From Pseudisothecium myosuroides (Eukaryota; Streptophyta; Bryopsida; Hypnales; Lembophyllaceae): DNA of 64,000 nt. Where the stretch lies: positions 7,254,001-7,318,000 of the forward strand of contig OX637296.1 in the NCBI GenBank assembly GCA_951799445.1, read 5' to 3'. A program made the position numbers and the translations under genes. This document shows, piece after piece, positions 2,922-53,961 of the stretch. How positions within the stretch are numbered: the stretch's first letter is position 1; each line of letters starts with the position of its first letter. The notes under the pieces are model-generated. The model did not search any database. It was not told the origin of the DNA and was given only the letters and a program-made list of their open reading frames with translations.

Positions 2922-5900
2922 ATGGCTGGAAACAGCTGGATTCAGTATTTTACCGGCGGGTTGTTTAAGGGAAGAGCTCCTGAATTCGGTAATCCTTCTC
3001 TTACTGGAAACATTTGAAGTTCATAGTTTGGTGTTCCTAGTAATAAGTGTCATAAATCTGTAGTTGCCAGATCAGATATACCCGGTTATCAGGGTCGGCA
3101 ACTCAGCAATTTATGCCGAATAATTAAATAAAGTTGCGAAAAATGGTTCAGCGGTCGCTTTTAGAATTAATAAAAAATTCAATTTTTTTGTTTTTCTTAT
3201 TTTTTCAAGAATTCGACGCTTCCATTATAGGAACATTAAGAGGGTGGTAAATTTATTATTCTGAGATTTGCATGTGGCCCATTCTGAAATTTTCTGATAG
3301 TTGGGCATTTGCAGCATTAATTTATTTATTTTCCGACTCTCTCAAAGTAATTTCCAGAAAAATTTAACTTTTGTTTTTTTAATATGATTTTTGCCGACCC
3401 TGATAGCTGGGTACGATACTCTACCATCTGTAAATTGTCCGTAAATTGTTTCAACTAATTTTGACACATATTAACGTTGTCTATTGATTAGCACATGATT
3501 GTTCTTGTGATGTAGCCCAGACGGCCAGGCATTACCTACAACTCACAACAGAATGTATGGAGAGAGTACGAATGAGGACTTTGCAAGACGATTCCACATC
3601 AACAGATGTCAAATTCAACCATGAGCAGTGCAAATACTTGGCCACTAAACTGGAATGGGCAATCCACTGTGCGCTCTTAGAGAGCCACTTCCCCGAAAGT
3701 CTTGCTGAACGTGAGGATGCAGCGAAGTGTCTTGAACTTTACATGATCCTCTTAATGTTGGCCAGGGAAGTGGAGGGCTTCATTGAAAGGTGTTCCAAGG
3801 AGAATTGGATTCAAGCTGCTGTCATTTTGGCAAACATGTCGGATCACGTTTGGTCACTGAGTTTTGACTTGGAGCTGTGTACAATGTTCTTCTCCTTCAA
3901 GAAATCACGATGCTTGACCTCGGAAGAATTTTCTGATATCAGGAGTCTTGAACTCAAACTTGTCAAAGAGAAGGCACTCGTTGATGATGAAACATTGTCT
4001 GCTTGTGTAAAAGCTCTGATTGAGTCAGGCGAAGCAAGTGACGATGACTATAAGTTGGCGACAATTTTACTTGCAAGAATCGATGGATTAAGGCAACAAA
4101 GTCCACATCTTGGTATATCAGAATCATCACAATTGAGTCTTCATGAAAGATCAGACATTTCAAACTTGAAATACGATGTGAAGATTGGAAATGGAGGCTT
4201 TGGTACTGTGTATAAAGCCATTTGGTGCGGAGTTGAAGTAGCTGTGAAGACATTTCATGGACCAGAGAACCCAGAATTCAAGAAGGAAGTGTCAATTTGT
4301 GCGAGGGTGTCTCATCCTAATACTGCGTCTTTGCTATTTTATGGAGTGGAAAATGGAGAATGCTCTATAGTAATGGAGTTGATGGATGAAGATCTCCAAT
4401 CTTTGATGAGAACCAGACTGCGATGCAACCGATCACGTGAATCTCCATTCTGCATTTTCGTAGCGCTTGACCTAATGCTTCAAATAGCCGAGGGAATGTC
4501 TTACCTACACAAATTGAGGATTGTACACAGGGATTTGAAGTCTTATAATATCTTGGTTCGATGTGTGACCTCAACTGAAGTAGATGGACATGAATATGTA
4601 CATGCCAAAGTGGCAGATTTTGGATTGTCAAGTACCAAGGAGAAGAGCATGACATATTCCAACCAGACTCTAAATATGGGTACTACAAGATGGATGGCCC
4701 CAGAATTGTTTGGGCATGGAAGGCCCCAGAAAGAGGCCTATCCTTTCAAGAGCGATGTTTACAGCTTTGCCATGGTTTGTTATGAAATTTTGACGGGAAA
4801 ATTTCCATTTACAACCGTTTTTAGCAATGCTGAAATAAAAAGGAAAGTCTTGGCCGGTGATCGTCCAGAATTACCTGATCAATGTCCCAGCAAGCTAAGG
4901 AGGTTGATTGAAAGATGTTGGAGCCCGGAGGCGAGGGCACGCCCTCGTTTTGCTGAGATATGTTTGGAGTTGGCGTATCTGAAAAGCTTACAAACGTCAT
5001 GTAAGTCTCTTTGATCACAATATTCGGATCTATAGCAAGTGCATTACACTAAAGAAGGAAAGCTTAAGAGTTTCTCTTCTCTAACTTTTCTTTGGATTTT
5101 CTTTCACCTGTAAGTCTTGTTGTTTGTCTTGAGCCGTTTTGGTTATTTTGCCAGTGAACCAAAAAGTGAGGCCCAAGTTATACAATCATTGTCAACGTTC
5201 GAAGAAGGTTGGAATAGCATTTGAGTGAGGTGTACTTGCTTCGTGTGCTGGTAATTGTTGTGATTGACTTCTTTTTGTGCATTATTTTGGACAGGGTCAA
5301 GCGTGGGGACTTATGCAATGTCAAATTCTGTAGCCTGTGTGCATCCTGCTGCTGCAAGGAAGGGTGGTGATGTTGCTGATCAGCCTTTGCCGGTGGTGAA
5401 CAAACAAGTGTGAGTTTATCAACGGGGCTTGAATTTTTTCGCTTCTTTGTGTCTGGTGTGTGGGTTTTTTGAATGAATGGTTTCTGGAGTGTTGGTTTAT
5501 AATGGTGTGCTGAAGGCTTTGTGTACAATGCAGGATCCTTGCTGAAAGCAGTGAAGCAGAATCACTAGCAGAAGTCCTAGCCCCTCTGGAAACTGAAGCA
5601 GACTCACTGGTAATGCCTCAGTCCCTACCGACGTGGATGCAGAGTCACTAGTTGCCGACTCTAAGAAATGGGGAGTTTTCATCAACGAAAACACCATGTC
5701 CGAATCTCTCACTGTCGTTGCAAACCTTGTATTTCTTTTAGATAGATTTCTCTCAAGCGAATATCGAATTTCTCATCAGTCGAAACGAACCAGGTTCTAA
5801 TGTATTCATTTTGGACAAATCTTGCAGGCTCGAATGTTCCGGTTGGCCCAGTTTAAGCGAGAACTTCAGGAGCTTCTAATCAGCTATTCTTACGTCATCC

Positions 5901-6270
5901 CGTTGAGAAGTTTCATGATTGCGTACAGACGACGCTACGACAAGGACCTCGACGTGCGAAACTTTGGAGCAAATAGCTTGAACGCCTTACTCCAGAAGGT
6001 ACTTCTGTCTAGTCATTATTGTATCCCTGAAACATCTTTCACGTGCTTTTTATATGGTCCATGATAGTTTTCGATAGTCTCATTAGAACCTGAACATAAT
6101 GCGTGAATTAGTGTGGTTTACTAGTATTGACTGGTTGACGCTGGTCTCCTAAAAGAGAGATGAACTAAATGGAACTACCTTGTTCTTAAACATGGCAGGT
6201 CACAGATGTTGCTGTACTGAAGACGACGACTGCCAATAATGTTAGAGAAGTGTGTCTGGTTGCTGTGTGA
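2922..6270 (+). CDS. TKL protein kinase with C-terminal LOTUS/OST-HTH-like domain, copy 1 (6 exons, 661 aa)
   Basis: Exons: 2922-2988, 3516-5000, 5295-5409, 5534-5609, 5828-5998, 6199-6270; all introns are GT-AG and the summed length (1986 nt) is in frame. Residues 1-22 (MAGNSWIQYFTGG...) form a small first exon that is also present in the copy at 56.9 kb. Residues 37-230 are a helical region resembling the HeLo/MLKL-type bundle found before some plant TKL kinases. The kinase domain (about 243-510) has GNGGFG (247-252), VAVK Lys267, HRD Asp362, DFG Asp390 and GTTRWMAPE, so it looks active. A Ser/Glu-rich linker (518-581) leads to a LOTUS-like domain (582-661) with KRELQELL, the PLRSF helix, LDVRNFG and SLNALLQKVTDVAVL. 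LOTUS domains bind RNA or Vasa-type helicases in other proteins. The kinase call is firm, the LOTUS call good, and the substrate is unknown. An unspliced form would stop at 5014, just after the kinase. Confidence 0.88.
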
Positions 6271-6745
6271 AGTCGTTGAGATTGTGGAAGGCATGAATCG
6301 ATATCCTAGTCATTGATGTGGATCTGTGTGAATTTTTGGACTATTCTGACTTGATTTTCAGTTGTGGATTGTGGATCAGCTACTGTTTTTTTTCCACACA
6401 ACACAACAACCAGTGTTTATTAGAAAGGAACTTTGCGATTATTTTTCTGTGCTGTGGAGCATTTGAAGAGGAGATCAGAGTATTTCATACACAGAAATCT
6501 TGTACTTTGTATTTGGAGAGTCATCGTTTGAGCATCAAATAGCAGCAGCTCTCCCAAAGTCACCGATCTAGATATTACTTGAATTGCTAGAAGCTTTGTG
6601 TGTTCATTCTCTCTACCCTAAATACTAAGCAATGGTTGAAAAATGTAGAAAGTTTTGTATTAACCCCCAAGTGCTTAGGCCTTTCCAAGTGTGTTTTTCT
6701 ATGAATAAAAAGCACGGGTTTATAGTTATCTCCAATGAAGTAAAT
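3425..6745 (+). repeat. Segmental duplication, source unit (partner 15631-18868)
   Basis: The sequence from about 3425 (inside kinase intron 1) to about 6745 (past the 3' UTR) recurs at about 15631-18868 at high identity, including introns and the 3' flank. Small indels in introns separate the copies. The first exon (2922-2988) is outside the duplicated block. The direction of copying is inferred: this unit has the complete gene. Confidence 0.9.
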
Positions 6746-6940
6746 TTTTTTTGTTTCAAGCGGTGTAATTGTAAATCATCGTTTGAGTTCCATGATCTTG
6801 ATGTAGGAGAGTTTTGCCGTCGTGGCATGGTTTGATATGTTAAGGAGAGGCAGATTAAGACTAATAATGCTCATTGCTAGCCTTGTACAAGTTTCCAACA
6901 GGGTGAGTATGAAGAAGAAATTTCATTGGTGTAGGCAGTG

Positions 6941-7667
6941 GGGTGATTGCATGAAATACTTCTACTATTTTCTGTCACACATTGCATGCTGATTAGTTTT
7001 TTGGCCATAATTTTTGGGTTTTGATTCAAAATGATTCAAAATTCATAGACAAGGTACTTATGACTATTATACACCTTTTTTATTTTTTTGGAATTTAAAA
7101 AAAATATTTTACTATTTAATAATAGCCCCCGATATTATCTCACAAATGCCAATTTGGAGGGGTTTAGTACTATTTAGTACCCATAAAAAAGAATTTGGAG
7201 TTGAAATTGGTAGAGATGGTCTTCTAGTAGACCTGTGGCTATTGTCAAAAGGAATTCTAAAAATATTTAATTTTATGTGGTGTAGAAGTCTATAAAGTGA
7301 GCCCCTTACTGCTTGCATTTTGAAACATGTAAAAAATTATTTTGGCGGGTTTTTTGGTGAATGAACATCTCCATAGAGTTGCCAAATGGATTTTTTTTAA
7401 TTTTTAATTTTTATTTTTTCCTATTTTCTACTAATTAAAACATCAAAGTATGTATTTTCTTGAGATTTGGCACTTTTCTAGTTCTCTTACTTAGAGAATT
7501 TTTAATGAATTTCCTTTGGAAGTTACCTTCATCTTAAAGGTGCATACATTGGCGATACTTTTTATTTTAAAAAAAAACTAATTTTCTAATTTTAAAGTAC
7601 TCTAGAAAAAATCATGAGTATTGTTGCAAAACGCAACAAATTGTATAGGTGTTTTGTGCAATCACCC
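6941..7667. mobile_element. Non-autonomous TIR transposon, GGGTGATTGC family, copy 1
   Basis: The ends are GGGTGATTGCA and its inverse TGCAATCACCC, flanked by AGTG on both sides (6937-6940 and 7668-7671). The interior matches the copy at 57924-58666, for instance the ATTAAAACRTCAAAGTA block and the TTCTAATTTT...AAAGTACTC stretch near the right end. No transposase frame is present. The superfamily is unassigned. Confidence 0.75.
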
Positions 7668-7837
7668 AGTGAGAGAAATTTGAGAGAAATACAGAGTTTC
7701 TACTACCACTAACCTACATTAACGAATCCATCTAACATAATCTAAATGCAAGAGACTTTTGCCATTGTAACATGTTTTGATTGGTTAAGCAATCAAAGAA
7801 GTCAAATGACTCAATTCTCCTACATTGACATTATGTT

Positions 7838-7947
7838 GGTAATTGCAAAGTAGGTCAAGTTATCAAAACCAATCGCCGAGTAGTACCAACCTTGGTAGGT
7901 CCTAACTGTCTATTATTTTTGATAACTTGGTCTGCTTTGCAATTACC
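7838..7947. other. Imperfect hairpin, 31-bp arms, 48-nt loop
   Basis: Arms 7838-7868 and 7917-7947 pair with about three mismatches (GGTAATTGCAAAG... against ...CTTTGCAATTACC). The size is compatible with a miRNA-type or MITE-type foldback. Expression is unknown. Confidence 0.6.
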
Positions 7948-8084
7948 TAGTCCACAACAATTGATTTCACATTCAATCCTTTTTTGGATAGAAACAAGAA
8001 AACTCTTGTTGCTGCGAGCACGTTGTCGCACCATTTGTATTCTTAAGGTCGATTTATCTCACGTAAAATTATGAGCAAGAATCC

Positions 8085-8830
8085 ATACCTTAAGTTTGTT
8101 TGTTTGTTTTGTTTGTTTTGTTTGTCACGTTGGGATCTCCCGGACCGTGCATCCCCCGGCGGCTTGCTTGGTACCATCGGAAAGCCCTCGGCAAGGAAGG
8201 ATGTACAGGCTTGGTTTCGTCGTGTTTGGAGTTACGGTGCAGAAGTTATTGAATTTTGAAGTACTTATGGATCAAAAAATTAGGAAATTACTTTTACTGT
8301 GATTTTGGTCGCGTTCTTGGTACCGTCGGAAAGCCCTCAGCAAGGAGGGGTGCACAAGCTTCGTTTTGTGGCACTTGGACATGGGATGTGAAAGTTATGG
8401 ATTTTTTAATTATTTTTGGTTCTAAAAAATTACTAAATTATACTAAATTATGTATCTTTTGAACCGTCTGTCAATTTGTTACGTTCTTGGTACTGTTCAA
8501 AACCCCTTGGCGAGGAGGGGTGCACGGGCTTTATTTTATGGCGGTTGGACCTAAGTTGTGAAAGTTATGGATTTTCTAGTTTTTTTTTGTTCTTAAAAAT
8601 TACTAAATCATACTAAATTATGTACCTTTTGAACCGTGTGTCAAATTATCAAGTTCTTCATACCGTTGGAAAGCCCTCGGCAAGGAGGGATGCATGGGCT
8701 TTGTTTTGTGGCATTTGGACCTACTGTGGGAAAGTTATGGATTTTAGAGTTATTTTTTGTTTTTTAAATGACTTTTACTTTTGTTTTGGATGTGTCAACG
8801 GCACAGGGCTACACTAGTAAAAATGAAATT
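8085..8830 (+). repeat. Tandem repeat of about 150-171 bp, four diverged units
   Basis: Each unit carries AAAGCCCTCGGCAAGGAGGG, then GGGCTTTGTTTTGTGGC, then GTGAAAGTTATGGATTTT. Units begin at about 8181, 8330, 8499 and 8670 (steps 149, 169, 171). A single-unit relative lies at 62280-62550. Both copies start with a TTTGTTTGTTTTGTT run and end near CACTAGTRAAAA, so this is a dispersed repeat whose core has been amplified here. Confidence 0.8.
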
Positions 8831-9550
8831 AACTCTCATTATCATTAAGAATATCACAAGATTGATGCAAAATGTGGTATGCGAACATTTGCTGGACTCG
8901 ATAGCAGTGAAATACAAGATCTGAACAAGCCGATACACTCCATGACCAGTGCCTCATCGTGATTTTCCATCCTCAAATCATTCAGACACATGCTTCTCAA
9001 GCTGATTTACAGTAATTTAGTAGCCAATGCAAATTCCCGCAAGCAATGATATGAATGGTTCCAGCAACCACTGGCAAACAAGGAAATCCAGAGGGAATAA
9101 ACAAGTCGATCTCAGGTGACCCCGTTTGGAAGTTTGGCCAGTGCTGGTGGACATCAAGACATGGTCCAGAAAACAGTCGAACTTGATTCATGTCTACAAA
9201 TGGCACGAAACAAGCGTGTCGTCCGGCGCCAATGAATCAACACAAGAAGCAGCACTTCCAATTCGCGCCATTGGAGTAACATGGCGCGAAAAGGAACGAT
9301 TCCACGAAGATGAAGAACGAAATTTTTTCAAAAACCTGCATTTGCAATCCACATATTGCAAACTGATCCACGACAGTCACCGATATCGCACACAGCGACG
9401 AGGCAGACAAGTCCAGGCAGGCGGGAGGAGGAGGCAGCGACGAGGGAGACAGCAGTGAGACCAGACCGAGAAAATCGGATCTGGAGTGTCGGCAGCGCAT
9501 TCGGCGGGGCTGGCGCCTGACCTGACCGCGAAGGAGTCTCGTCATTCAAT

Positions 9551-9556
9551 TATAAG
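9551..9556 (+). promoter_or_regulatory. Candidate TATA box of the RopGAP gene
   Basis: TATAAG follows a GC-rich stretch and precedes a CT-rich leader (CTCCTCTCGCAG...TTGCTCTCTTGCTC), about 770 bp before the proposed ATG at 10322. The gap to the ATG would contain leader exon and intron. This is a position-based inference. Confidence 0.35.
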
Positions 9557-10321
9557 CGCGACCCCTGCTCCTCTCGCAGCGTACTCATTTGCTCTCTTGC
9601 TCAACCAGCTCATTCCCGTTTCATTCTCTTCTTGCATGTTCTCCCACGTAGAACAATCAAACCAAATGCGACATGACGGGAAGCAGTAGCCACAAGTAGT
9701 AACAGGGGGATGCATTTGTAGAACGACAGGGGTTTAGTTTGTTTAAGTTAGATCCAGGGGAAGGGATCCATGGGAGTGTCGGAGGTCGGGTGCGCACGGT
9801 GCTGGAAGATGGGTTTAAGGTGGACGCTACTGCGCACAGTGTGGTGACAGCCGTTGATTTGGGAGTTCATATTTGAAAACGCCGGCATGTATTCAAACTT
9901 AGGGCAGGCTGGAGCGCGGAGGAAGGAGAAGACCAGCAGGTTGAGGAGAGAGTATCATGTTTTTTTCAGATCCTGTTTTTCATTTCGACTGGACGATGCG
10001 GACTGTGGCGGGGACTGGGATCCCTATGGTGTGGAGATGGCGATGGTCTGAGGAGAGCGTGTTTTTCGGACATGGTTAGGGAATGAAACCCCAGGCCAAT
10101 TATTTGGCGAGGATGGCGTTTGCTTATGCGCATTGGTGTTGGATAAAGCTGCAGCAGGTGGAGGTGCTGTGGAGGAGAATCAGCAGTGTCTTATAGTGGT
10201 GGCGTAGAGATTATTTAGGAGGGGTGTTGGAGTTGCCAATGATCGAGTTTGTGGGAGTTTTAGGGGAGTGTTTGCTTCATCGCCGCTGTTGTTGTACTAA
10301 GTTTCTCTGGCGGCAGAAGAG

Positions 10322-13300
10322 ATGTCCACTGCAACGAGCCCGACTCCATTTGACCGGCCTGCCAGAACGAGCAATCGCAGCAACAGCTCGGTGAGTGGGA
10401 CGGATCTGGTCTGCATTGGTCTGGGGGCAAGAATTCTGTAGATCTGCTGGCGAGGGAAGGAATTAGGTCACAGAGGGAGTGATGCCCCTGGAATATACGC
10501 CTCGGGTACACCCTATGGAGAGATTTGACCTGAGCAGCAGCGTTCTTCGGTTTTCGGAATGATATTTACTTCAGCCTTCCATGTATATTAATATACTTAG
10601 GTTTTCTCTGGCAAATGGGAGTTCTGATGATTCAGAGAGTTTGGTTGTTGAGGGAGATGGAAAGATTGTAGAAGACATTTGTGTTTTCAGAGGAGTGATG
10701 AACCCCTAAGTGCCTAATCAAAAAACAGAAGAGTAGTGTTTGGAAGGTAATAGTGGATTATAAGGACTTTCATAAAGTTGTTTTCAAAAATCTAGGGTAT
10801 GATTATTTCTTTCTATTGGTGTGTTTTGTGACAAAGCTTTCTAAATGATTTGTGATAATATTTCAATAGAGATGACTATGGGCACGAAGGGGTTAAACAA
10901 ACTTAGGGTTTGATGTCAAATGAGAGTTCTAATCATTCAGAGGTTAGGATTGATTCTTCAGATGAATACATTCGTAGAGGAGCTAGTTTTAGAGGAGTTT
11001 AAGGTGATTATTAGTGCGTTGATTTTTTTGGTAGTACTTCGTGCGTCTTGTCTAGATGTACCGGTATTCATTTGCTGGGATTAAGTTCATTTTAATATTA
11101 AGATCTCTCTGCAGGTTTATAAGAGCGGGCCATTGTACATCTCATCGAAAGGTATGCTGCTGTTCTCTTCTCAGAGCGACTATCCTATTCTTCCAATTTT
11201 TTTGAGATCTATTGTTATCTTGTATGCCGCTGAGAGCGTCAAAGTAATGCGTTTTGAAAGGAAGTTATGTCATTACTCTGCAATCCCCGTTTTTATTCAT
11301 TTTGCTTTTGTGCACCCCCATTGTTTTCCTTAATCAGATAATCTTCGCAATTAGCAGCTATTGAGATCAGTTCGTTATGACTATTCAGTTTTAGGTTGGA
11401 CGTCATGGAAACGACGATGGTTCATGCTGACCCGAAAGGCACTGGTGTTTTTCAAAAATGACCCGGTGAGTTCATCAAAGTTCCATTAGAATTGGAATTC
11501 CAGGCTGAATTGAAATGTTGCATTATATATATGCATCGTTGTTTTAATCCGACGTTGATTCATTATATTTGTGAATTGCTTAGGTCAGTCCAACTGGATG
11601 AACAGCTATCAAAGTCTTCTTTACTTCTGTTAGATGCTGGAGACGTAGTAGGCCTGCGTCAAAGTCGCCTCATGTTCGAATCGAGGTAGCAATCGAATGA
11701 AGTATAGATGACTATTATGAACATGCAGTCAAAGGTCTCATTTGGGTGTTGGAGAATTCTTATTATCAAATACCAGGCGCAACCTTTTCCCTTTGCCAGT
11801 ATATTGACCTATATTATTCTTACCTGTGATGATCTTTGCAACTGTGTGCAGAACACATATCCCTCGAAAGGGGGTGATATGAACCTGACTCTTGGGGGAA
11901 TCGATTTGAACAACTCTGCCAGGTGATCACTGCATTTCTATGTCCTTATTGAATATCTTAGCTCCTAGGATTTGGTCCTCGTTTCTCTCCAGGCTGAGCT
12001 ATTTCCTTTCTCTTGTCGCTATATGACTTCACATCTTTCTCCTTAACCCCAAGAGGACCAAGATTGCTAGTTCTGATTAGGTCATGTAGTGACTTCTTTT
12101 GTTCATTTTGGTTTATTTTTTACTAGCATGTGCAATGTTGTTCACTGATTCTAGCGGTATATAATATGGTCGCATCTGAATTATAGTTTTCACAGTATGA
12201 TAAATTGAATTGGGCATTTTAAAAGCGTGCATTGTTTGTCCTGAGGAGTTAATTGATCTTATTGAGTATTAGACACCATCCTCATCTGTGACGTTATTTT
12301 GAGCGCAAATTAATTCTTAGACGATGACAGTTAGAGATGAGCTGTATGCGTGTTCGGGTAAATGCATGCAATGACAGAGAATGGGCAATATCGGGCAGTT
12401 CAATAACCAATAGTGGGCATGTGAGCAGTGTGCTTGTGCGGGCTGAGAAAAAGCTGCTGACAGTCTTGTTTCCGGATGGACGGGCCTTTACTCTGAAGGT
12501 GATCACCTTTGATGTATTTCTCAGTTCATTTGCTACGCTGTGGTCCAATTAACTGGGACTTGACCTAGCTGCAAATTCTCTAAGTAGTACTCGTGTATTT
12601 TCTCATCTGTGATTTACGCCACGCTACTCCATTAGCAGCTTTCTTTCGATTTCAGGTTTCCTAAATGTAGAACTTGTACATCGTATATTCTTTATAGGCG
12701 GAGACTGTTGAAGACGTGGATGAATGGAAAGATGCATTGGAGCGGGCTCTTCAGGCAGCACCAAATGCATCCACTTTGAGTAACAGTCCTAGCTTCCAAA
12801 CTGAGGGTCTTGAATCTATCGATGGGTCTTCAGAGCCAGATGCGCCATTTGGTTTTGAAACATTGGCCATGTGCATTATGTGTATTGAATTTGTATTATT
12901 GATTTTGGTAGATATTTTGTTTTGTGTTTTTTTTAAAATGTAACTTGAATCCAAATACAATGCGGAAACTCTGATTTTGGAGTATGTTATTGTCTGCAAT
13001 GTGTAGACCTAAACTGGTTTGATGTGCATTGACAGGTCTCACAGGAAGCAACCGGCGACCAGTCAGATCCATGGTCGTTGGTAGGCCAATCCTGTTGGCC
13101 TTGGAAGACATTGATGGAAGTCCGTCCTTTCTGGAGAAGGCCCTTACGTTTATTGAGACATATGGTATGTCATTCATATCTGAATTACGGGTATATCTGA
13201 AACAATCTACCTATGCTCCAGACATCAGTCTTGGTGAAAAAAACTCATTGACTTAATGCAATTAATTGTGAAAACAGGTGTTGGGGTGGAAGGAATATTG

Positions 13301-15638
13301 GGGCAATCTGCAGATGTTGAAGATGTGGAGCGACGTGTGCGTGATTATGAACAAGGTTTATTTTTCTTGTATTTTTCTCTCTTTTAGAATGTACACTTGA
13401 TACACCATATACTGTCGTTTTCGTTTGCAGTGGGTCATAAATTAAATTTTCCCGCTACAATTGTATCCAAAGAGACTACAAGCCACTCTGCAAGGTTGCG
13501 GCTTTCAAGGTGGTCAAGAGAGCCACACTAACTCTGAAAAATATGAATCCCTTTGGTTTCATGATGAGAAGACTTCAAAGCTGAGATGTTATACATTACT
13601 GAGTGCGTATTGAGAACGACTAACTCTATGTTTTTTTGCTCATGTCAAGGGCGAAATCAGTTTTCACCTGATGAAGATGCCCATGTCATTGGCTATTGCA
13701 TAAAGGTTGAATATCTACACATGGTCAAGTTGATGTCGGAATTTCAGGATGTTGTAAGAGATGACTTCGTAAATCTCTTCAGTGCATATTGTACTAACAT
13801 CCTTCACAATGATTAGATGCCTAAATTACAGTTTGTTGCTGGGCGCAGCATGTGCTAAGAGAGTTGCCGTCATCACTGGTCCCAACACCATGCTGCACTG
13901 CGCTTCTCGATGCTCAAAGTAATAACTTCCCTTTGCTCAATGATCCATTCTGTCATTCATGTTCATGTCCTGCTATCCAAGTAGCAGTTTACTGACTTTC
14001 TATTTGTACCTGTGAACAAACTGATCAATCAACAGGATTGGAAGGGAAGGCGTCTCGTGTCTCATCGATGAAGTCAGCTGTCACTGATACATTTCCGGAG
14101 CCTAATCGAAGACTGCTTCAAAGGTAGTTCTAATGTCTATTGTGCCGTGCCCTTCCATCATCGTGATGTCTGTCAGGAGTTCGATGTCTGAAGAACGTAC
14201 ACGCTTACAGTTGTTCTCTACTCGATGAGCTGTCAAGCTGATTATGGTATTCTAATCTAAGGTTTGAGATTTTTGAGATCTAGATTTGTCCGAACTTTGG
14301 ATGTTCTGCATGTGCGTATTGTTCTCTTCATCTAATGAGCCTTTCTTACATAACGGTGCACCTTTCAGAGTTTTGAGAATGATGAGATCAGTATCAGCAC
14401 ACACAGATGACAATCGAATGACTGCATCAGCTGTTGCTGCATGTATGGCTCCACTGTTGCTGCGTCCATTGTTGGCTGGTGAATGTGGACTGGAGGATGA
14501 GTCTGAAGTCAGCCCAGACAATGCTGCTCAGCTCCTGGCAGCTACGGCTGCAGCCAACAATGCGCAGTCCATTGTCACAACGCTCTTGGAAGAGTATGAT
14601 CACATCTTTGAAGTAAGTCTGCAGATTTTGTCACTCTTGTGGGCTCTTGTATTTTCTTTAGATGCAATGCTGCAATTCTGGATGTATCTACAGTATCTAC
14701 TATGATATTATTAGTGCTAAGGCTGCTCTGCTGTTTCAGGATTATGGTTTACAACGTGCCCCACCTTCTCCTCAAATATATGGAACTCTTGAGGCCAGTG
14801 AGACCGAAGCCTCCTCCGATGACGAGGACGATGAAGTATTGCACGCAATGAATGAGGATGAATGGAATTTCCATGATGCTGCAAATGATTTGCACAAAGA
14901 GGGTGATGAGTACATCGAGCGCGCTCTCTCGGGCACTCTTAGTGAAAGTAGTGGCAACCTTGGCAGTGATGTGTTTGACTACAAGGTGGGATATTTGTGG
15001 AGAGTGTATTTTCTCATCTGTGATTTACGCCACGCTACTCCATTAGCAACTTCCTTTTGAATATTTGTTGATTTTAGGTTTCCTAAATGTTGAACTTGCA
15101 CATTGTATATTCTTTACAGGCGGAGACTGTTGGAGACGTGGATGAATGGAAAGTTGCATTGGAGCGGGCAAATGCATCCACTTTGAGTAACAGTCCTAGC
15201 TTCCAAACTGAGGGTCTTGAATCTATCGATGGTTCTTCAAAGCCAGGTGCGCCATTTGGTTAGAAACATTGGCCACGTAAATTGTATGTGTATTGAATGT
15301 GTACTATTGATTCTGGTGGATAGTTCGTTTGTGTGTTTCCTAGAAAATAATTTGAATCCAAATACAACATGTGGAAACTCTGATTTTGGAGTATGTTATT
15401 GTCTGCAATGTGTAGACCTAAACTGGTTTGATGTGCATTGACAGGTCTCACAGGAAGCAACCGACGACCAGTCAGATCAATGGTCGTTGGTAGGCCACTC
15501 CAACTGGCCTTGGAAGACATTGATGGAAGTCTGTCCTTTCTGGAGAAGGCCCTTACGTTTATTGAGAAATATGGTATGTCATTCATATCTGAATTACGGG
15601 TATATCTGAAACACAATTTACCTATGATCCATCTGTAG
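10322..15638 (+). CDS. PH domain-RhoGAP protein of REN1 type (RopGAP), 3' end rearranged
   Basis: The gene inactivates ROP GTPases in the plant family. Exons: 10322-10390, 11115-11151, 11389-11465, 11852-11922, 12429-12498, 12698-12851, 13036-13164, 13278-13355, 13650-13705, 13849-13918, 14036-14123, 14369-14612, 14740-14985 (1389 nt, 463 aa, in frame). The PH domain (about 24-125) reads VYKSGPLYISSK, GWTSWKRRWFMLTRKALVFF, LTLGGIDLNNS, LLTVLFPDGRAFTLK. The RhoGAP domain (about 170-385) reads VVGRPILLALEDIDG, HVLRELPSS, FPEPNRRLLQR, AVAACMAPLLLRPLLAGE. The arginine finger in the EGILRQSADV motif is Gly211 here. Exon 3 could instead start at 11395. The coiled-coil C-terminal half usual for the family is absent. 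Instead come exon 6' (15120-15258) and exon 7' (15445-15573), both in phase. Reading through the exon 7' donor gives TAG at 15636; splicing it leads into the kinase at 15723 (see findings). Confidence 0.9.
12593..13220 (+). repeat. RopGAP exon 6-7 block, source of internal duplication
   Basis: This block runs from late intron 5 through exons 6 and 7 into intron 7. It recurs at 15004-15630 with scattered changes and a 15-nt in-frame deletion in exon 6 (the LQAAP region lost). Confidence 0.9.
15004..15630 (+). repeat. Second copy of the RopGAP exon 6-7 block
   Basis: The copy of 12593-13220 starts at GTGTATTTTCTC, 18 bp into intron 13, and ends at about 15630, where the kinase duplication begins without spacer. 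It keeps the acceptor before exon 6' (TTTACAG), the donor after it, and the exon 7' acceptor (GACAG) and donor (GTATGT). Confidence 0.9.
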
Positions 15639-18600
15639 TTTGTCCGTAAATATTTTTTCAACTGATTTTGATGCATATTGACGTTGTCTATTGATTAGCA
15701 AATGATTGTTCTTGTGATGTAGCCCAAACGGCCAGGCATTACCTACAACTCACAATAGAATGTATGGAGAGAATACGAATGAGGACTTTGCAAGACGATT
15801 CCAAATCAACAGATATCAAATTCAACCATGAGCAGTGCAAATACTTGGCCACTAAACTGGAATGGGCAATCCACTGTGCGCTCTTAAAGAGCCATTTCCC
15901 CGAAAATCTTGCTGAACCTGAGGATGCGGCCAAGTGTCTTGAACTTTACATGATCCTCTTAATGTTGGCCAAGGAAGTGGAGGGCTTCATTGAAAGGTGT
16001 TCCAAAGAGAATTGGATTCAAGCTGCTGTCATTTTGACAAACATGTCGGATCACGTTTGGTCACTGAGTTTTGACTTGGAGCTGTGTACAATGTTCTTCT
16101 CCTTCAAGAAACCACGATGCTTGGCCTCGGAAGAATTTTCTGATATCAGGATTCTTGAACTCAAACTTGTCAAAGAGAAGGCACTCATTGATGATGAAAC
16201 ATTGTCTGCTTGTGTAAAAGCTCTGATTGAGTCAGGCGAAGCAAGTGACGATGACTTTGAGTTGGCAACGATTTTACTTGCAAGAATCGATAGATTAAGG
16301 CAACAAATTCCACACCTTGGTACATCAGAATCATCACAATTGAGTCTTCATGAAAGATCAGACATTTCAAGCTTGAAATACGATGTGAAGATTGGAAATG
16401 GAGGCTTTGGTACTGTGTATAAAGCCATTTGGTGCGGAGTTGAAGTAGCTGTGAAGACATTTCATGGACCAGAGAACCCAGAATTCAAGAAGGAAGTGTC
16501 AATTTGTGCGAGGGTGTCTCATCCTAATATTGCATCTTTGCTATTTTATGGAGTGGAAAATGGAGAATGCTCTATAGTAATGGAGTTGATGGATGAAGAT
16601 CTCCAATCTTTGATGAGAACCAGACTGCGATGCAACCGAACACGTGAATCTCCATTCTGCATTTTCGTAGCGCTTGACCTAATGCTTCAAATAGCAGAGG
16701 GAATGTCTTACCTACACAGATTGAGGATTGTGCATAGGGATTTGAAGTCTTATAATATCTTGGTACGATGTGTGAAGTCCACTGAAGCAAATGGACATGA
16801 ATATGTACATGCCAAAGTGGCAGACTTTGGATTGTCAAGAACCAAGGAGAAGAGCATGACAAATTCCAACCAGACTCCCAATATGGGTACTACTAGATGG
16901 ATGGCCCCAGAAATGTTCGAGCAAGGAAGGCTTGTTAACAAAGAGGCCTATCCTTTCAAGAGCGATGTTTATAGCTTTGCCATGGTTTGTTATGAAATTT
17001 TGACGGGAAAATTTCCATTTACAACCGTTTTTAGCAATGCTGAAGTAAGAAGGAAAGTTTTGGCCGGTGATCGTCCAGAATTACCTGATCAATGTCCCCC
17101 CGAGCTAAGGGGATTGATCGAAAGATGTTGGAGCCCGGAGGCGAGGGCACGCCCTGGTTTTGCTGAGATATGTTTGGAGTTGGCGTACCTGAAAAGCTTA
17201 CAAACGTCATGTAAGTCTCTTTGATCACAATATTCGGATCTATAGCAAGTGCATTACACTAAAGAAGGAAAGCTTAAGAATTTCTGATCTCTAACTTTTC
17301 TTTGGAGTTTCTTTCACCTGTAAGTCTTATTGTTTGTCTTGAGTCGTTTTGGTTATTTTGCCAGTGAACCAAAAAGTGAGGCCCAAGTTAAACAATCATT
17401 GTGAACGAAGAAGGTTGGAATAGCATTTGAGTGAGGTGTGCTTATTTCGTGTGGTGGTAATTGTTGTGATTGACTTCTTTTTGTGCACTATTTTGGACAG
17501 GGTCAAGCGTGAGGTCTTATGTTGTTGATCCGTCTTTGCCGGTGGTGGACAAACAAGTGTGAGTTTATCAACGGGGCTTGAATTTTTTCGCTTCTTTGTG
17601 TCTGGTGTGTTGGTTTTTTGAATGAATGGTTTCTGGAGTGTTGGTTTATAATGGTGTGCTGAAGGCTTTGTGTACAATCCAGGATCCCTGCTGAAAGCAG
17701 TGAAGCAGAATCACTGGCAGAAGTCCTAGCCCCTCTGGAAACTGAAGCAGACTCATTGGTAATGCCTCAGTCCCTACCGACGTAGATGCAGAATCACTAA
17801 TTGCCTTGCACTCTAACAAATGGGGAGTTTTCAATAAGGGAAACACCATGTCCATCTCTGTCGTTGCAAACCTTGTATTTCTTTGACAGAGTTTCTTTCA
17901 AGTAAACATTGAATTTCTCATCAGTCGAAGCTAACCAGGTTCATTTTGGACAAATCTTGCAGGCTCGAATGTTCCGGTTGGTCCAGTTTAAGCGAGAACT
18001 TCAGGAGCTGCTAATCAGCTATTCTTACGTCATCCCGTTGAGAAGTTTCGTGATTGCTTACAGAAGACGCTACGACAAGGACCTCGACGTTCGAGACTTT
18101 GGAGTAAATAGCTTGAATGCTTTACTCCAGAAGGTACTTCTGCCTAGTCCTGAAACATCTTTTACTTGCTTTCTATATGGTCCATGATAGTTTTTGATAG
18201 TCTCATTAGAACCTGAACATAATGCGTGAATTAGTGTGGTTTACTAGTATTGACTGGTTGACGCTGGTCTCCTAAAAGAGAGATGAACTAAATGGAACTA
18301 CCTTGTTCTTAAACATGGCAGGTCACAGATGTTGCTGTACTGAAAACGACAACTGCCAAAAATTTTAGAGGAGTGACCCAGATGTGTCTGGTTGCTGTGT
18401 GAAGTCGTTGAGATTGCGGAAGGCATGAATCGATATCCTAGTCATTGATGTGGATCTGTGTGAATTTTTGGACTATTCTGACTTGCTTTTCAGTTGTGGA
18501 TTAGCTACTGTTTTTTTTCCACACAACACAACAACCAGTGTCTGTTAGAAAGGAAGTTTGCGATTATTTTTCTGTGCTGTGGAGCATTTGAACAGTAGAT

Positions 18601-18868
18601 CCGAGTATTACATCGACACAGAAATCTTACATTTGGAGAGCCATCGTTTGAGCATCATATAGCAGCAGCTCTCCCAAAATCACCGATCTAGATATTACTT
18701 GAATTGCTAGAAGCTTTGTGTGTTCATTATCTCTAACCTAAAGGAGAAATACTAAGCAATGGTTCAAAATTGTAGAAAGTTTTGTATTAAGTGCCTGAGC
18801 CTTTCCAAGTGTGTTTTCCTATGAAGATAGAGCAAGGGCTCATAGTTTTACCTAATGAAGCAAAAAAA
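15631..18868 (+). repeat. Segmental duplication, second unit (partner 3425-6745)
   Basis: The homology starts at the ATCTGTA shared with 3425 and ends in the A-rich stretch near 18860. It carries kinase exons 2-6, all introns and the 3' flank, and abuts the RopGAP exon 6-7 duplicate. Confidence 0.9.
15723..18402 (+). CDS. TKL protein kinase with C-terminal LOTUS-like domain, copy 2 (5 exons)
   Basis: Exons: 15723-17210, 17501-17558, 17683-17758, 17963-18133, 18322-18402. Taken alone, the first usable ATG is 15764, giving a 597-residue product; the small first exon of copy 1 is outside the duplicated block and missing. The acceptor before 15723 (GATGTAG) needs a phase-1 donor, which the RopGAP exon 7' supplies. 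The kinase motifs GNGGFG, VAVK, HRDLKSYN, DFG and GTTRWMAPE are intact, and the LOTUS part (ARMFRLVQFKRELQELL, LDVRDFG, SLNALLQKVTDVAVLK) is complete with its own TGA at 18400-18402. It differs from copy 1 at a few percent of kinase residues, by one extra residue after GTTRWMAPE (GRLVNKEA), by a shorter linker (19 codons fewer) and by three added codons near the end. It is either an N-terminally shortened kinase or the 3' part of a fusion gene. Confidence 0.88.
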
Positions 18869-18869
18869 A

Positions 18870-19558
18870 AATTCAAAATGGAGCTATATAGATGTTTGAA
18901 GAGCTTGCTTACTAGTATGCATACCAATTTTGAGTGTGAAATTGCATAGAAGTTGTGAGATTATGACAAGAGAAATGCAAGTATCCTATTTTTAGTATGT
19001 TGCCCCTCTCCATGATGTTTGAGAAATTTGCATATAAGAGTTTTTTGGGATTGGAGGTGACATGAATTACTAGAAATTGTGTTAGCACATTAATATGTAC
19101 TTCCAAAAACCTTAAGTTCAAAAGAAGAGCTATCAAACTCATTACATAATCCACCTTGTAATTGTTGAAATGCAATTTTCTTTTATAATGAGAAATTGCA
19201 AATAATTCCAAATCAACATTTATATGTCCAAATTTTCAACGATGAAAATAATGAAAACACTTTGTTCTTTCCATTGGGACCACTTTTAAAGCAAATGGAT
19301 AAGTACGATTTTTTTAGATCTCAAATCAAATGAAATTGGCAAACTTTATTCTTCCACTAATGGTACACACATGCCTTTGAGGACCTCTTACAAATCAAAT
19401 ATTTACTTTTTTAGTCAAAAATAAAAACTTCCAATAGCTAACCTTCAATATATACCGCCTGTAAAAAAATTTAGAACAGTCAAGGGAATGTAACTACCCA
19501 CATACAAATGAGCAGAAATTTTAGAGCAACCATATATGGTCGTTTGAGCAGTTAGGAA
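18870..19558. other. AT-rich intergenic DNA
   Basis: This is low-complexity AT-rich sequence after the duplicated kinase block. I see no gene, RNA or intact element. Confidence 0.5.
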
Positions 19559-19559
19559 T

Positions 19560-20832
19560 GAAGCCCCAAAGTTCCATGACTATGTTTTCCACCAAAAACG
19601 CTCCCAAATTGCCATTTCTAGTACAAGTACCAAATTTTAGAAAAAAAACTTTTTTTGACACATATAACTATAGGATCTTGTAGTATGCTGATTTGAGAAC
19701 ATTTGGTAAAAAATTCAGAAATCTCCACCGTGTGGATTGCAAGATATAAGCATTCAAATTCACTGAAATCATCTTTTGGGGCCCTGCAAAAAATAGTGCA
19801 GCTGCACTTCACAAGCTCACTTTTCTAAAAAAATGTCAAAAATGGTGGTGCTTCTTAGAATTCATTTTCGTAGACAAGTTGGCTTTATGCTTGAAAATTT
19901 CACATCATTTGAAATTGTACAACATATAGGAAAAGAAATAGTAAGTAGAAAGAAGTAGAGAATGATTTAAAATACATAGTTGTTAAGAATTCAATTATAG
20001 AATTGAAAAATGCCAATCTAAATTGTTTTAATGTTGTAATTGACTATCTACATAATATGATTACATTTTTTTTCCAAAATATTGAAAATTGAGTTAAATA
20101 AAAGACTTCAAAGTTTATTTTAGAGTAGAAAATACATAATTGTCCGCAAACTAAAACTCCTCATAACTTTCATCTCATCAATCAAAATGCATTAGAAGGG
20201 AAAGGGAGGTGCAAAAGGGCCGTGAATTTTTTCACGTTCCCGGGGGTTCTTGTTCCGTTCTCATGAAAGATATTCCATACATGCAATCATCTGACGTGGT
20301 TGGGAACCTTGGATGTTGAAGGTGCTATCTTTTAGAAATTGCCACCTGCAAAGAAGTGTAGACACGTCACTTGTGCCCACGACCCCCCCAAGTCGTAGTC
20401 TTCAAACCCATCCTCAACTCGTCCTACATGTATCCCACCAAAGAGTCAGAGCATCAAGTAACAGGTGCCATATGTGAAGCCCTGGTGTTGACTGGATTTG
20501 AGAACATGGTAACCAAAGGCTTGGGAACAAACATTAGATGGCCCTTTGCAGGCTCCATTTTTTTCCTAATGGAATGATTCAAAGCTTTCAGCGTATTTGT
20601 GAATCTAGAAAACCAATTTTAAATTTTTGTTTCGGAAAAAAGGATTTTTTAAATTTGCCCAAATTGCCCATTTACAAAAAGAATAATATATTAGGCCATA
20701 ACTTTTGAAAGATATTCTTCATCTACACCTTTGATTATATTTTCAACCTAAAGTTTATAAATCGTCATTCACACCAGTCTGCCTAAAATCCCTATGTAAC
20801 CAAAAAATGTGGTTTGGTCCTTTAGGGGTTAA
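19560..20832 (+). mobile_element. Diverged TTAA-family element, left end eroded
   Basis: The right end GGTCCTTTAGGGGTTAA (TTAA at 20829-20832) and internal stretches (GCCATTTCTAGTACAAG, ATAGGATCTTGTAGTATG) parallel the intact element at 28741-29674. About 400 bp in the middle (20211-20580) is richer in GC and unlike the other copies. No clear left terminus is found. Confidence 0.55.
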
Positions 20833-26450: not shown

Positions 26451-28736
26451 CCATCAGTATAAATGGAATAACAGACACACACACATGTATATTCTTGCGC
26501 CTCATAGTGAATTGATGCAATTGCTTGAGTGTCTTGGAGAATTCAGAGAGATTCCATATGAATAGATAGGATGATGTGTATAGACAAGAAATTTTTGCGC
26601 TTGTGATTTGAAGAGATCGTGCAATAAGGTTGTTGAGGAGATTTTTTGAATTTCATAAGTCTTAATAAAGTTTAGAGGCAACCAAAACAAATAAATTTTT
26701 AAGAAACTTATGAATGGGGTCTCCAGTGATATAATCTTGCAATCTTGCAGCCTAATCAGTGTATTCAATTCCATCATGTTGCTTTCTACTGCTCCAAAAT
26801 TTGACAATGATGGGCAGGAGAGGATGGTGACATTGATTGTGGCATTGTCATTGAAGATCAAAGGCATTGCGGATGGATACATCCAGGAGCACAAGCAAGT
26901 GCTTCCCATGAACGAGATTCATTGGCTTAATTTTCCTATCAAAGTTTCATCTTTCTTCTTCAATCTCTTTCAATTTGGATTTTTATCAATTCTAAGTAGC
27001 TACGACGAGGCTAGAACTTCTTTTTATTATAAATAGTTTATTAAAAAATTATACAACAATTGAATAAAAAATAGATTGGCTTGAAGCATGAGTGACTTAG
27101 AGACATGGATGCATTATTTTTTTTCGATTCTTTATCTTTCAAGAGAATTTTTTAGCTATTGGTGCTTGTGATAAAAAAATTAGACACAACTGGCTAGGTT
27201 TGATTGTGGCTTTGTGGAATTTCGGTTTCTAAATGTTGGGCCGACGAAGTCCACTGAACTAAATTGTGGCAAATGTGCTCTCCTTGTTGCAATGAACTTG
27301 AACAAAGCAATGAAATTCAATTTCAAAATATTCAAGTTTTGTTTAAGGATTTGCCTCAACGACCAATAGACACATATGGATATTAACTATGATCTATTTT
27401 TTTTGTCAATTCTGATTTTGTTGCTTTATTCAGAGCTTTCCTTTTGTTTGAAGATGGGATTTGGCTTTCAGTTTGCAGAGAGGTTCTATGAGTGACAATT
27501 TTGCGGACTTTTCCACAACCGGACTCAAGAAGACTTGAGAAGATTAAAGAGCACTAAATGCAATGAAGATTTGAGCACTAAATTTGAGTTGAGGTTCTTT
27601 CATTTGCAAGGAGCTGTTGTTCTCGTTTAGGCTGCAAGTTGCAGTAGATTGCTCAATAGTCTTTTAATGTAATTATGACCATTGAAACACTTCTCGTGTT
27701 TTGTGTTATATGTATGATGCAATATAAAGAAATGAAAATCATTTTCAACCAATTATGGTGTGCCACATGTACAAAAATTATTCTTTGACTACCCTACTAT
27801 TGCATTTGTGCATGGTTTTACACTATCACTATCACCTCGAAAGCAGTAGTAACTGCCTGTACACACATTATCCTATGAAGTTAATTTTGGTCAGATGTTC
27901 ACAGAATTTTGACATAAGATATGAAATTGTACCCCTATAGTGGGAATCTAATTTTTTTTTGTCCTAAACTTTTTTGTCATCTTGGTGAATTTGGACATCT
28001 TTGGAGCATCTTTTGTAAAAACTCTCATCAACTATTAAAATTTGGCATTTATGTAACTAATAAAATATGACATACAATTTTTAAAAGATAAATTTAGTTC
28101 TCACATTACATTCTAGGAAGAGTCAAATTTTATTAGCTATGTCGGGGTGGTTTTGAGAAAAAACATTTTCTTCTATTCTCAAGCCCTATTATCTTGCAAT
28201 ATGTACAGTCAAAGTTTTTGAAATTTTTCCCATATATTCCAAATGTTTTATCTCTAATTTTTTACCATTTGTATTTTAAATTAAAAATTTCCTCATTGCA
28301 CAAGAAATCCTCAAAAAAATGAATTGTATATTGCCAATGTACTTAACCTCCTTGCATTGCAGGTTGATTTAGAGTAAGCTAGGCTCCATATTTGCTTTTG
28401 GATTTTTTTTTGAGTAAACCTTACATTATATACTTATGAATAGTCAAAATCTTCATTTTTGTGTAGACCAAAAATTTGACTCTAAGAAGGCTCCAAGTCC
28501 CCTGACCCTAGTTTGTAGGAATGAAAAAAAAATTCTTATTTCAAACTTTATGATCTTACAATCCACATGGTCGAATGGAATGAATTTTTTCAATTCATTG
28601 CTTTAACTATTTAATACAATATTTTATGGTTGTAATTAAAAACAAAAATTTATTTTTTATTTTGGACAATGCATAAAAAATTGGCAGTTTTGGATTTTTT
28701 CCTCTTCTAAAATACTCTTTAGCCTTCAGGGGGTAA

Positions 28737-29678
28737 TTAACCCCTAAAGGACCAAGGCCTTTTTTCTGCCAAAAAACCATCAAAACTGCCATTTCTATAG
28801 CAAGGAGTAAAAAAAAATGAAAAATGTTTTTTTTTGCACATCTAACCGTAGGATCTTACACCCAACTAGTATGAAAATGTGTGGAAAAAATTTCAGAATT
28901 TTTGACCGCTCAGATTGCAAGAAATCTGCGTTTAAAATGGAAAAAACAAGTATTTCAGCACATTGCGGGACTAGATTTTTTGACTTTAAACATTTTTCAC
29001 TTAAAATTTTTGCACTACAGAGTTTTGTGCTTTAAGTCTTTATAGTGGAGAATTGAGTTGAGAGTCTAGGGAAAAAAAAATATTCAAAAAAAATTAATTA
29101 TCATTCCTAAAAAATTTATTAAATAGAAGTAGGTACAAGATAGAAGGAAAATCTAAAACATTAATATATTTTAGAGGGAATTAAAATATACTAATTCCAA
29201 TGGTGAGATTGTTCTAGCAAGTAAACTAAACCATGAGAATTTTTATTTTTTTTTAAATTGCAGAAATAGCATTCGGAAATGAATCCTACAAGTTATTTTT
29301 TTCAAGAAGATGCTCTAACTGCCCGAAAAACAAGAATGTCCATAACTTTTTCATAACAAATCCAAATGAAATGAATCAAAGCTTTCCAGATAGACAAAAA
29401 TATAATCTACAAGAAAAAAAATACTAAAAAAACAAAAACAAATTTTTGCCAAATTTTTCTTGCTGCCCGGACTGCCCAATTACAAAAAAAAGTAACATAT
29501 TTGGCTATAAATTTTGACTCCTATTTCCAAATGTGCTGAAATTTAGTGCATATGAAAGATATTCCTCGCGCCCACCTTCTATTAAAATTTCAGTTTAAAA
29601 TATGAAAATCTCTAGTGACATGGACCTGCCCAAAATTTCTATACGGCCAAAAATGCATGCCCGTCCTTTAGGGGTTAA
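28737..29678. mobile_element. TTAA-family TIR element, intact copy A, nested in the CACTA element
   Basis: The 934-bp body (28741-29674) has terminal inverted repeats CCCCTAAAGGAC and GTCCTTTAGGGG and is flanked by TTAA on both sides. Copies B (53980-54911) and C (63087 onward, inverted) match along the full visible length. There is no transposase; short open frames at the left end are by-products. A TTAA target and CCC-starting ends are seen in piggyBac and Sola3 groups, but assignment needs a related autonomous copy. Confidence 0.8.
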
Positions 29679-52990: not shown

Positions 52991-53961
52991 ATGGTTCAAC
53001 CAAGGGAGAGTAATGGTTATCAGAAATAAATGGCAATTTTGCGCTGAGCTGCCTGGCCCAGTGACTTTCCAAAATTTAACTTTATAATCTTGAAGATTGC
53101 ATTATGCCAAATACATATGACATTCAAATTTCAAACTATTGTTTGTATGAATGATTAAGGATCGTAGTCACCAAAAAAAATTTCCTCAGCATCTATCATT
53201 ATACTTCAGTCTTAAGGATAAGTTTGTGCACTTGAATGTCACTGATTATATATCTTCTAACTTATGTTCTTAAGTAGGTTGTAAGTGAAATTAAGAAGGG
53301 CTAGCAATTTGTGTTCTTAACCTGTACCCAACTACCCGCTCAACCATTTCAACTCTCATAGGACTTTCAAAATTTTGCATTGCATTGATTATGAATTGGT
53401 AATAAAACTAGATAGATGTACCTTTTGGAGTAAAGCATCCAAACTAGTTGCTCCAAAGTATTGTAAATCGAGATCCTTTTGGAAGTGTAGTTTGTAAACC
53501 TTGAAGAATTTCTCCAACGCAATGTTGTAATAATATATGACTAACAGCTCTTGAAGTTTTTGCTTAAAAGATATCAATAGACACTCATAAGCAATGTCAT
53601 CAGGTTGAAAAAAAAGGCTGCCAACCACGCCTGTAGTTAAAGGTGGAGGCTCACGGGCTACAGGAGTCAACACTCTAGAAGTACATGTCCAAATAGTAGA
53701 CATATACACAATTATCAACAATCTACTTTTGCTTTCCAATGAGCACAGCTGGTATACTATTTTCAACTCAAAGAAATAGAAAGTTGCGTCTAAAAATAAA
53801 TAATTGATCTCTTAGAACAAACAACGAATGTCAATGCTGTGGCTCTCGAGATTTACTTGACATTTGTAAGCTTTTCACATATCTCAAAAATTTGCATATG
53901 TCAGTAAAACAAGGGCGTGCACTAGCCTCTTGGCTCCAACACTTCTCTATCAACATCCTTA

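What the first reader, a model, noticed from the sequence alone, without database searches (positions are those of the whole stretch)
10322..18402. Candidate in-frame fusion gene: PH-RhoGAP joined to TKL kinase and LOTUS domain
RopGAP exons 1-13 total 1389 nt. Exon 6' (139 nt, phase 0 in) and exon 7' (129 nt) follow in frame and end in a phase-1 donor at 15574 (GTATGT). The next acceptor (GATGTAG, exon at 15723) is kinase exon 2, which needs phase 1. The joined frame is 3531 nt, 1176 aa, with no stop until 18400. Both breakpoints lie in introns and both keep phase, and the new intron (15574-15722, 149 bp) has normal size. The kinase copy here lacks its own first exon. Seen: frames, splice sites and duplication borders. 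Inferred: that one transcript is made. A ROP-binding module fused to a kinase and an RNA-associated domain is not an architecture I know.
Basis: partly seen in the sequence, partly recalled or inferred. Interest (0 to 1): 0.95.

Follow-up and report, generated by a model that had tools for sequence, protein, structure and literature searches.

The report
Young moss RopGAP-MLKL kinase fusion gene
In a moss genome, a damaged copy of a cell-polarity regulator has been stitched in frame to a copied kinase of the MLKL (cell-death) type, giving what looks like a newborn hybrid gene, although damaged splice signals leave it open which protein, if any, it makes.

Summary
The DNA is as described: exons 1-13 of a REN-type PH-RhoGAP, a second copy of its exons 6-7, and a kinase copy lacking its first exon share one open frame (3531 nt, 1176 aa). 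An apparently complete REN lies 3.4 Mb away; the window holds a copy of its 5' half. The joints show 6- and 3-bp microhomology in introns of equal phase.

New points. (1) The arginine finger is lost: residue 204 is Gly, Arg in 115 of 115 REN homologs. In Physcomitrium REN, R204L severely reduces GAP activity without affecting ROP binding. (2) Exon 6 lost its donor (GT to AT); the in-frame substitute is very weak, so the 1176-aa product is doubtful. (3) The kinase is of the plant MLKL kind; moss relatives carry diverse added domains. (4) The kinase frame is preserved although its upstream region and start exon were not copied.

Verdict: a real, young chimeric locus; a fused transcript is plausible but unproven, since no RNA data were available.

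The parts
9568..10321 (+). copied 5' flank of REN (presumed promoter/5' UTR piece)
   Evidence: homologous to the 5' flank of the complete REN, 40 of 728 aligned bases differ; promoter function inferred
10322..14985 (+). REN-2: exons 1-13 of a PH-RhoGAP (PH + RhoGAP domain), a copy of the 5' half of the REN at C10:3894352-3902264; coiled-coil tail absent
   Evidence: (PF00169 43.7 bits, PF00620 98.1 bits)
12840..12841 (+). lost donor of exon 6 (GT in parent and in exon 6', AT here)
13301..13303 (+). codon 204, arginine finger changed to Gly (parent CGG, window GGG)
13647..13649 (+). weakened acceptor of intron 8 (CAG in parent, AAG here)
15004..15009 (+). junction 1: 6-bp microhomology GTGTAT between REN intron 13 and intron 5
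15004..15631 (+). second copy of REN intron 5 to intron 7 (exons 6' and 7')
15574..15722 (+). hybrid intron: REN intron 7 donor joined to kinase intron 1 acceptor (junction 2 at about 15629, 3-bp CCA)
15723..17210 (+). kinase B exon 2, symmetric 1-1 exon (1488 nt): MLKL-like N-terminal bundle (15725-16309) plus kinase domain
17501..17558 (+). kinase B exon 3
17683..17758 (+). kinase B exon 4
17963..18402 (+). kinase B exons 5 (17963-18133) and 6 (18322-18402): LOTUS/OST-HTH domain and stop
   Evidence: PF12872 32.0 bits, cutoff 23.8
2922..6270 (+). kinase A, source of kinase B: own first exon 2922-2988, then 3516-5000, 5295-5409, 5534-5609, 5828-5998, 6199-6270

Best explanation
This is a young chimeric gene. 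A copy of the 5' half of REN (5' flank to intron 13) was joined by microhomology to a second piece of REN (introns 5-7) and then to a copy of the neighbouring MLKL-like kinase gene from its intron 1 on. Kinase B lacks the upstream region and start exon of kinase A, so the most likely source of its message is transcription from the copied REN start, spliced through exon 7' into kinase exon 2. The product would carry a REN-derived PH part (with or without the GAP domain) in front of an MLKL-like helical bundle, a kinase with intact catalytic motifs, and a LOTUS domain. The GAP part is not expected to work as a GAP. If retained, it would be a membrane/ROP-binding module that brings the kinase to ROP domains. 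Shown: DNA structure, frames, source genes, lost arginine finger, lost donor, MLKL resemblance, frame conservation. Inferred: transcription, splice form, ROP binding, function. Because the exon 6 donor is lost, a short form that skips from exon 5 to exon 6' (814 aa, PH-MLKL-LOTUS) is at least as plausible as the 1176-aa form.
Against: No RNA evidence of any kind. The exon 6 donor is lost and the intron 8 acceptor weakened; exon 6 skipping or the stronger cryptic donors shift the frame and stop at residue 179-262. All 15 polarisable amino-acid changes between REN-2 and its parent are in REN-2, several at positions invariant in 115 homologs, as expected of decay. Exons 6'/7' have too few changes to show selection (7 nonsynonymous and 5 synonymous codons against the parent; dN/dS 0.41-0.47 against the window copy). 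PpREN binds active ROP only weakly, the tail deletion tested there removes more than is missing here, and in PpRopGAP1 the corresponding arginine mutation did abolish binding by the isolated GAP half. Whether the copied 754-bp flank holds a promoter is unknown. Kinase B could start at its own ATG at 15764. Against the MLKL label: Pfam finds no MLKL or DUF1221 domain in the window protein, a single-sequence search matches AtMLKL2 and 3 in the kinase part only, and Foldseek gave no significant match for the bundle.
Confidence: 0.48

Rival explanations
1. Two separate fates: REN-2 is a truncated, decaying pseudogene, and kinase B is expressed on its own from a cryptic promoter in the REN-derived DNA, starting at the in-frame ATG 15764 (13 residues into the bundle). 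The open joint frame is a by-product of intron-phase matching.
For: Lost donor, weakened acceptor, R204G and 15 of 15 polarisable changes in REN-2. The kinase frame is conserved regardless of the fusion. An in-frame ATG exists.
Against: REN-2 has no frame-breaking indel in 1368 bp although 27 lie in 3997 bp of its noncoding DNA, and exons 6'/7' kept their frame with a 15-nt in-frame deletion. Nothing upstream of kinase A exon 1 was copied with kinase B.
Confidence: 0.36
2. The reader's full 1176-aa protein is made and acts as a ROP-binding pseudo-GAP kinase: PH plus GAP-dead RhoGAP plus MLKL-like kinase plus LOTUS. (A sub-form of the best explanation.)
For: Open frame. In PpREN, GAP-dead R204L keeps ROP binding and a tail deletion increases it. 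Moss class III formins carry a RhoGAP-like domain without the arginine finger in front of an effector domain (PMC2386819, passages).
Against: Needs the exon 6 donor at 12851, 0.29 bits against 4.1-10.0 for 18 compared donors.
Confidence: 0.1
3. Alternative fusion that skips the dead GAP: exon 5 splices to exon 6', giving an 814-aa PH-MLKL-LOTUS protein. (A sub-form of the best explanation.)
For: Phase 0 on both sides; exon 6' is a copy of exon 5's natural partner and has an intact donor; frame open. The loss of the exon 6 donor would favour it.
Against: It must skip eight exons over 2.6 kb, seven of them with a GT donor in place. No RNA data.
Confidence: 0.15
4. Assembly artefact at 15004 or 15630.
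For: The breaks lie at copies of other stretches of the same contig.
Against: No N in the window; pieces differ from their source copies by about 5-12%; microhomology at the joints; the whole 501-base junction query matches once in the genome.
Confidence: 0.04

Closest known systems
REN-type RopGAP (PpREN, AtREN1)
   Same: PH and RhoGAP domains, exon structure of the parent gene, 86-89% identity to the Ceratodon and Physcomitrium proteins over the aligned part
   Different: arginine finger replaced by Gly, coiled-coil tail missing, exon 6 donor lost
Plant MLKL (AtMLKL2/3)
   Same: N-terminal helical bundle plus kinase domain; first two matches by profile and by the structural second look
   Different: kinase catalytic motifs intact (VAVK, HRD, DFG), LOTUS domain at the C-terminus; AtMLKL kinases are described as pseudokinases (PMC10951266, passages)
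Pm13 and other kinase fusion proteins of cereals
   Same: MLKL-type N-terminal domain with a catalytically complete kinase; Pm13 is called a kinase fusion protein by its authors (PMC10951266, passages)
   Different: no PH, RhoGAP or LOTUS part is described there; its kinase was placed in the LRR_8B subfamily
Moss class III formins
   Same: RhoGAP-like domain without the arginine finger fused to an effector domain (PMC2386819, passages)
   Different: formin FH2 instead of kinase; [quoted passage not shown]
Dictyostelium ROCO kinases with RhoGAP domain; oomycete MAP4K with RhoGAP
   Same: RhoGAP and kinase on one protein (PMC1420674 and PMC3019232, passages)
   Different: other kinase families and lineages; no MLKL bundle or REN-type GAP mentioned in the passages seen

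Membership tests
REN-type RopGAP | PH domain | tested here: met
   PF00169 43.7 bits, cutoff 25.1; but changed at G36, S53 and G84, conserved in 114, 115 and 115 of 115 homologs
REN-type RopGAP | RhoGAP domain with arginine finger | tested here: not met
   domain present (98.1 bits) but residue 204 is Gly; Arg in 115 of 115 homologs
REN-type RopGAP | coiled-coil tail (PF14389) | tested here: not met
   the C-terminal half of moss RENs has no convincing match in the window (best E 3.4); present in the parent
REN-type RopGAP | binds active ROP | not testable with these tools
   inferred from PpREN R204L data only
plant MLKL | N-terminal helical (HeLo-like) bundle followed by kinase | tested here: met
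plant MLKL | pseudokinase domain, as in AtMLKL | tested here: not met
   Lys, HRD and DFG motifs present, as reported for Pm13
plant MLKL | cell-death or immune activity | not testable with these tools
   no expression data
LOTUS/OST-HTH | LOTUS domain by profile | tested here: met
   PF12872 32.0 bits in the fusion and 34.4 in kinase A, cutoff 23.8; relative P0018 22.0, below it; no significant PDB sequence match
kinase fusion protein / integrated-domain protein | extra domain in the same transcript as the kinase | tested here: inconclusive
   open frame but lost exon 6 donor and no RNA

The most novel reading that the evidence does not exclude
Mosses have a family of MLKL-like kinases that pick up extra domains (lectin, WRKY, TIR, NB-ARC, AP2, SH3, EF-hand, ARM, LOTUS) much as NLR receptors carry integrated domains, helped by one large symmetric phase-1 exon that holds the whole MLKL-like module. 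This locus shows the birth of one such receptor-like protein: a GAP-dead, tail-less REN that still holds ROP-GTP and membrane lipids, and so places an MLKL-like executor where ROPs, or pathogen proteins that attack ROP signalling, act.
Probability: 0.13. Interest if true: 0.86.

Novelty: new variant of a known kind. Interest (0 to 1): 0.58.

Why it matters
If transcribed, it is a case of a new signalling protein made by copying and joining introns of equal phase, with both source genes still present in the same genome. It would carry changes much like two that experimenters made in REN (GAP-dead, tail-less), which predicts a ROP reader instead of a ROP inactivator. It also points to a moss MLKL-like kinase family with many added domains, which bears on how plant immune receptors gain sensors.

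Tried and rejected
RopGAP tail downstream: tblastn of four moss RENs against the window found no convincing match to the C-terminal half (best E 3.4), so the kinase is not sitting inside an otherwise complete REN gene. Simple tandem duplication of a unit 3424-13220: explains the intron 7/intron 1 junction but not exons 8-13 lying before it, so at least one further step is needed. Order of events: in the 15004-15631 stretch the second copy has 38 private changes, the window copy 4 and the parent 13, so this block may be older than the REN duplication, or the window copy was gene-converted by the parent; unresolved. A source of kinase B other than kinase A: the next best genome match is the minus-strand copy at 74% (only the best candidates are scored). 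Search for fusion homologs: none in the rows listed, but only the best 120 of 2122, 3660 and 323 hits were shown and about 8000 candidates per search were scored. LOTUS plus kinase in moss literature: nothing relevant by title and abstract start among the 5 papers found for 'LOTUS domain', 'kinase', 'moss' (listing only). Plant MLKL with added domains in bryophytes: searches were read as listings, plus passages of PMC11218826, PMC10951266 and PMC9950082; I do not claim that it is not in print. Foldseek on the N-terminal bundle gave no E<=0.001 match. A link to the Ceratodon phytochrome-kinase gene (recalled) was looked for in two papers and dropped as untested. The dN/dS estimates vary with method (0.43-0.62 kinase A/B; 0.61-1.83 REN-2/parent; one method failed for exons 6/7) and were not used as a main argument.
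Full report
What was checked. The nearest named REN proteins are those of mosses (Ceratodon 89%, Physcomitrium 86%), so I take it for a moss. Pfam finds PH (43.7 bits), RhoGAP (98.1), protein kinase (182.8) and OST-HTH/LOTUS (32.0), all above their curated cut-offs.

Where the pieces come from. A genome search shows a second REN gene at C10:3894352-3902264 whose exons cover the whole protein, coiled-coil tail included. I call it the parent; I translated its exons 1-13 without a stop but did not assemble its tail. The window copy, here called REN-2, matches it from 9568 to 15009, i.e. from 754 bp upstream of the start codon to 24 bp inside intron 13. It differs by 4.7% overall and 5.6% in introns. 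The tail is not found in the window. At 15004-15009 both sources share GTGTAT, and the sequence switches to REN intron 5, runs through exons 6 and 7, and at about 15629 switches (shared CCA) to intron 1 of kinase A. Kinase A lies at 2922-6270 and has a first exon of 67 nt ending in phase 1. A third, decayed copy on the minus strand has a recognisable version of that exon (47% identity, E 0.006), so the exon is probably ancestral and kinase B lacks it. Kinase A/B introns differ at 45 of 892 bases and REN-2/parent introns at 184 of 3269, so both duplications could be of the same age. The middle block is the exception: 38 private changes against 4 in the window copy and 13 in the parent, which I cannot place in time.

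Is the frame more than luck? Between kinase A and B the only indels in 1862 bp of exon are 3, 57 and 9 nt, all in frame; 12 frame-breaking indels lie in 1228 bp of noncoding DNA, one of them at the alignment edge (Fisher p = 1.6e-5). Between REN-2 and its parent there are none in 1368 bp of exon and 27 in 3997 bp of noncoding DNA (p = 5e-4). These are pair counts, so part of the deficit belongs to the other copy. Rough neutral simulations that charge half the divergence to each copy left an open frame in 8 of 4000 runs for REN-2, 0 of 4000 for kinase B, and 1.7-6.7% of runs for exons 6'/7' with 5, 4 or 3 assumed noncoding indels; five, plus one at the edge, were counted. Polarised by the nearest homolog (P0121, 89%), kinase A has 19 and kinase B 17 amino-acid changes, with 17 of 53 sites not assignable. 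Kinase B is therefore as well kept as kinase A although nothing upstream of 3424 was copied with it. This is the best indirect argument that it is read from something upstream.

Of 17 amino-acid differences from the parent, 15 can be polarised by three moss RENs and all 15 are changes in REN-2. One is the arginine finger: residue 204 is Gly, against Arg in all 115 REN-type proteins that could be aligned among the 120 listed; the other five rows are kinases. D237 and P250, also changed, are invariant in those 115. In Physcomitrium REN the residue numbered R204 was changed to Leu; P0005, an isoform with five extra residues, has it at 209, so it is the same residue. GAP activity fell severely, the interaction with active ROP4 was not affected, deletion of residues 375-921 increased it and deletion of the PH part slightly decreased it. 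The paper also says that REN binds ROP weakly, that tail-less and GAP-dead versions do not rescue the mutant, and that the corresponding arginine mutation in RopGAP1 abolished binding by its isolated GAP half (PMC10625565, sections 13 and 14 read). So REN-2 is not expected to do REN's job, but a ROP-binding role is conceivable.

The splice problem. In REN-2 the donor there is AT instead of GT. The intron 8 acceptor is CAG in the parent and AAG here. The 1176-aa protein is therefore doubtful. By contrast exon 6' keeps a strong donor (9.9 bits), and exon 5 to exon 6' is a phase-0 junction between natural partners: exons 1-5, 6', 7' and the kinase form an open 814-aa PH-MLKL-LOTUS frame, at the price of skipping eight exons.

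Comparison with what is known. RhoGAP and kinase domains are known on one protein in Dictyostelium ROCO kinases (PMC1420674, passages) and in an oomycete MAP4K (PMC3019232, passages). Moss class III formins have a RhoGAP-like domain without arginine finger (PMC2386819, passages). In none of the 120 rows shown by each of three protein searches do the listed domains include RhoGAP plus kinase. A REN-MLKL-LOTUS combination is thus new as far as these searches go, but it is a new variant of known kinds: kinase fusion proteins and pseudo-GAP fusions.

Verdict. That kinase B is read from the REN-2 start is my preferred but unproven reading (0.48). RNA would settle it.

Noticed in passing
window 53389-56996, minus strand: Third, diverged copy of the kinase gene (74-77% to A/B in DNA), with stops, frameshifts, HGD and NFG in place of HRD and DFG, and a repeat of about 0.94 kb (53974-54915) lying in its kinase part; it keeps a recognisable exon 1 and LOTUS exon.
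   Followed up: partly
window 3103-3422: Dispersed repeat (terminal inverted repeats seen by eye) in intron 1 of kinase A, with matches of mostly 70-77% in about 30 other places; it ends just before the 3424 duplication border.
   Followed up: partly
window 6941-7668 and 18788-20189: Abundant dispersed repeats lie on both sides of the REN-2/kinase B block (mostly 80-91% alike; only the 40 best candidates of each search were scored).
   Followed up: no
window 28735-29678, 53974-54915, 63082-64000: A repeat of about 0.94 kb in three copies, about 94% alike, one of them inverted.
   Followed up: no
window 38764-39911 and 44666-45806: Two stretches about 71-73% alike in direct orientation, possibly a diverged duplicated gene.
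   Followed up: no
moss proteins P0128, P0167, P0169, P0171, P0187, P0223, P0242, P0244, P0246: The MLKL-like kinase module occurs beside HSP70, EF-hand, TIR, WRKY, NB-ARC, AP2, SH3, lectin and ARM domains, at either end: a possible moss family with integrated domains.
   Followed up: partly
window 15004-15631: This copied REN block is much more diverged than the window/parent pair in the same stretch (38 against 4 and 13 private changes), at odds with a single simultaneous event.
   Followed up: partly
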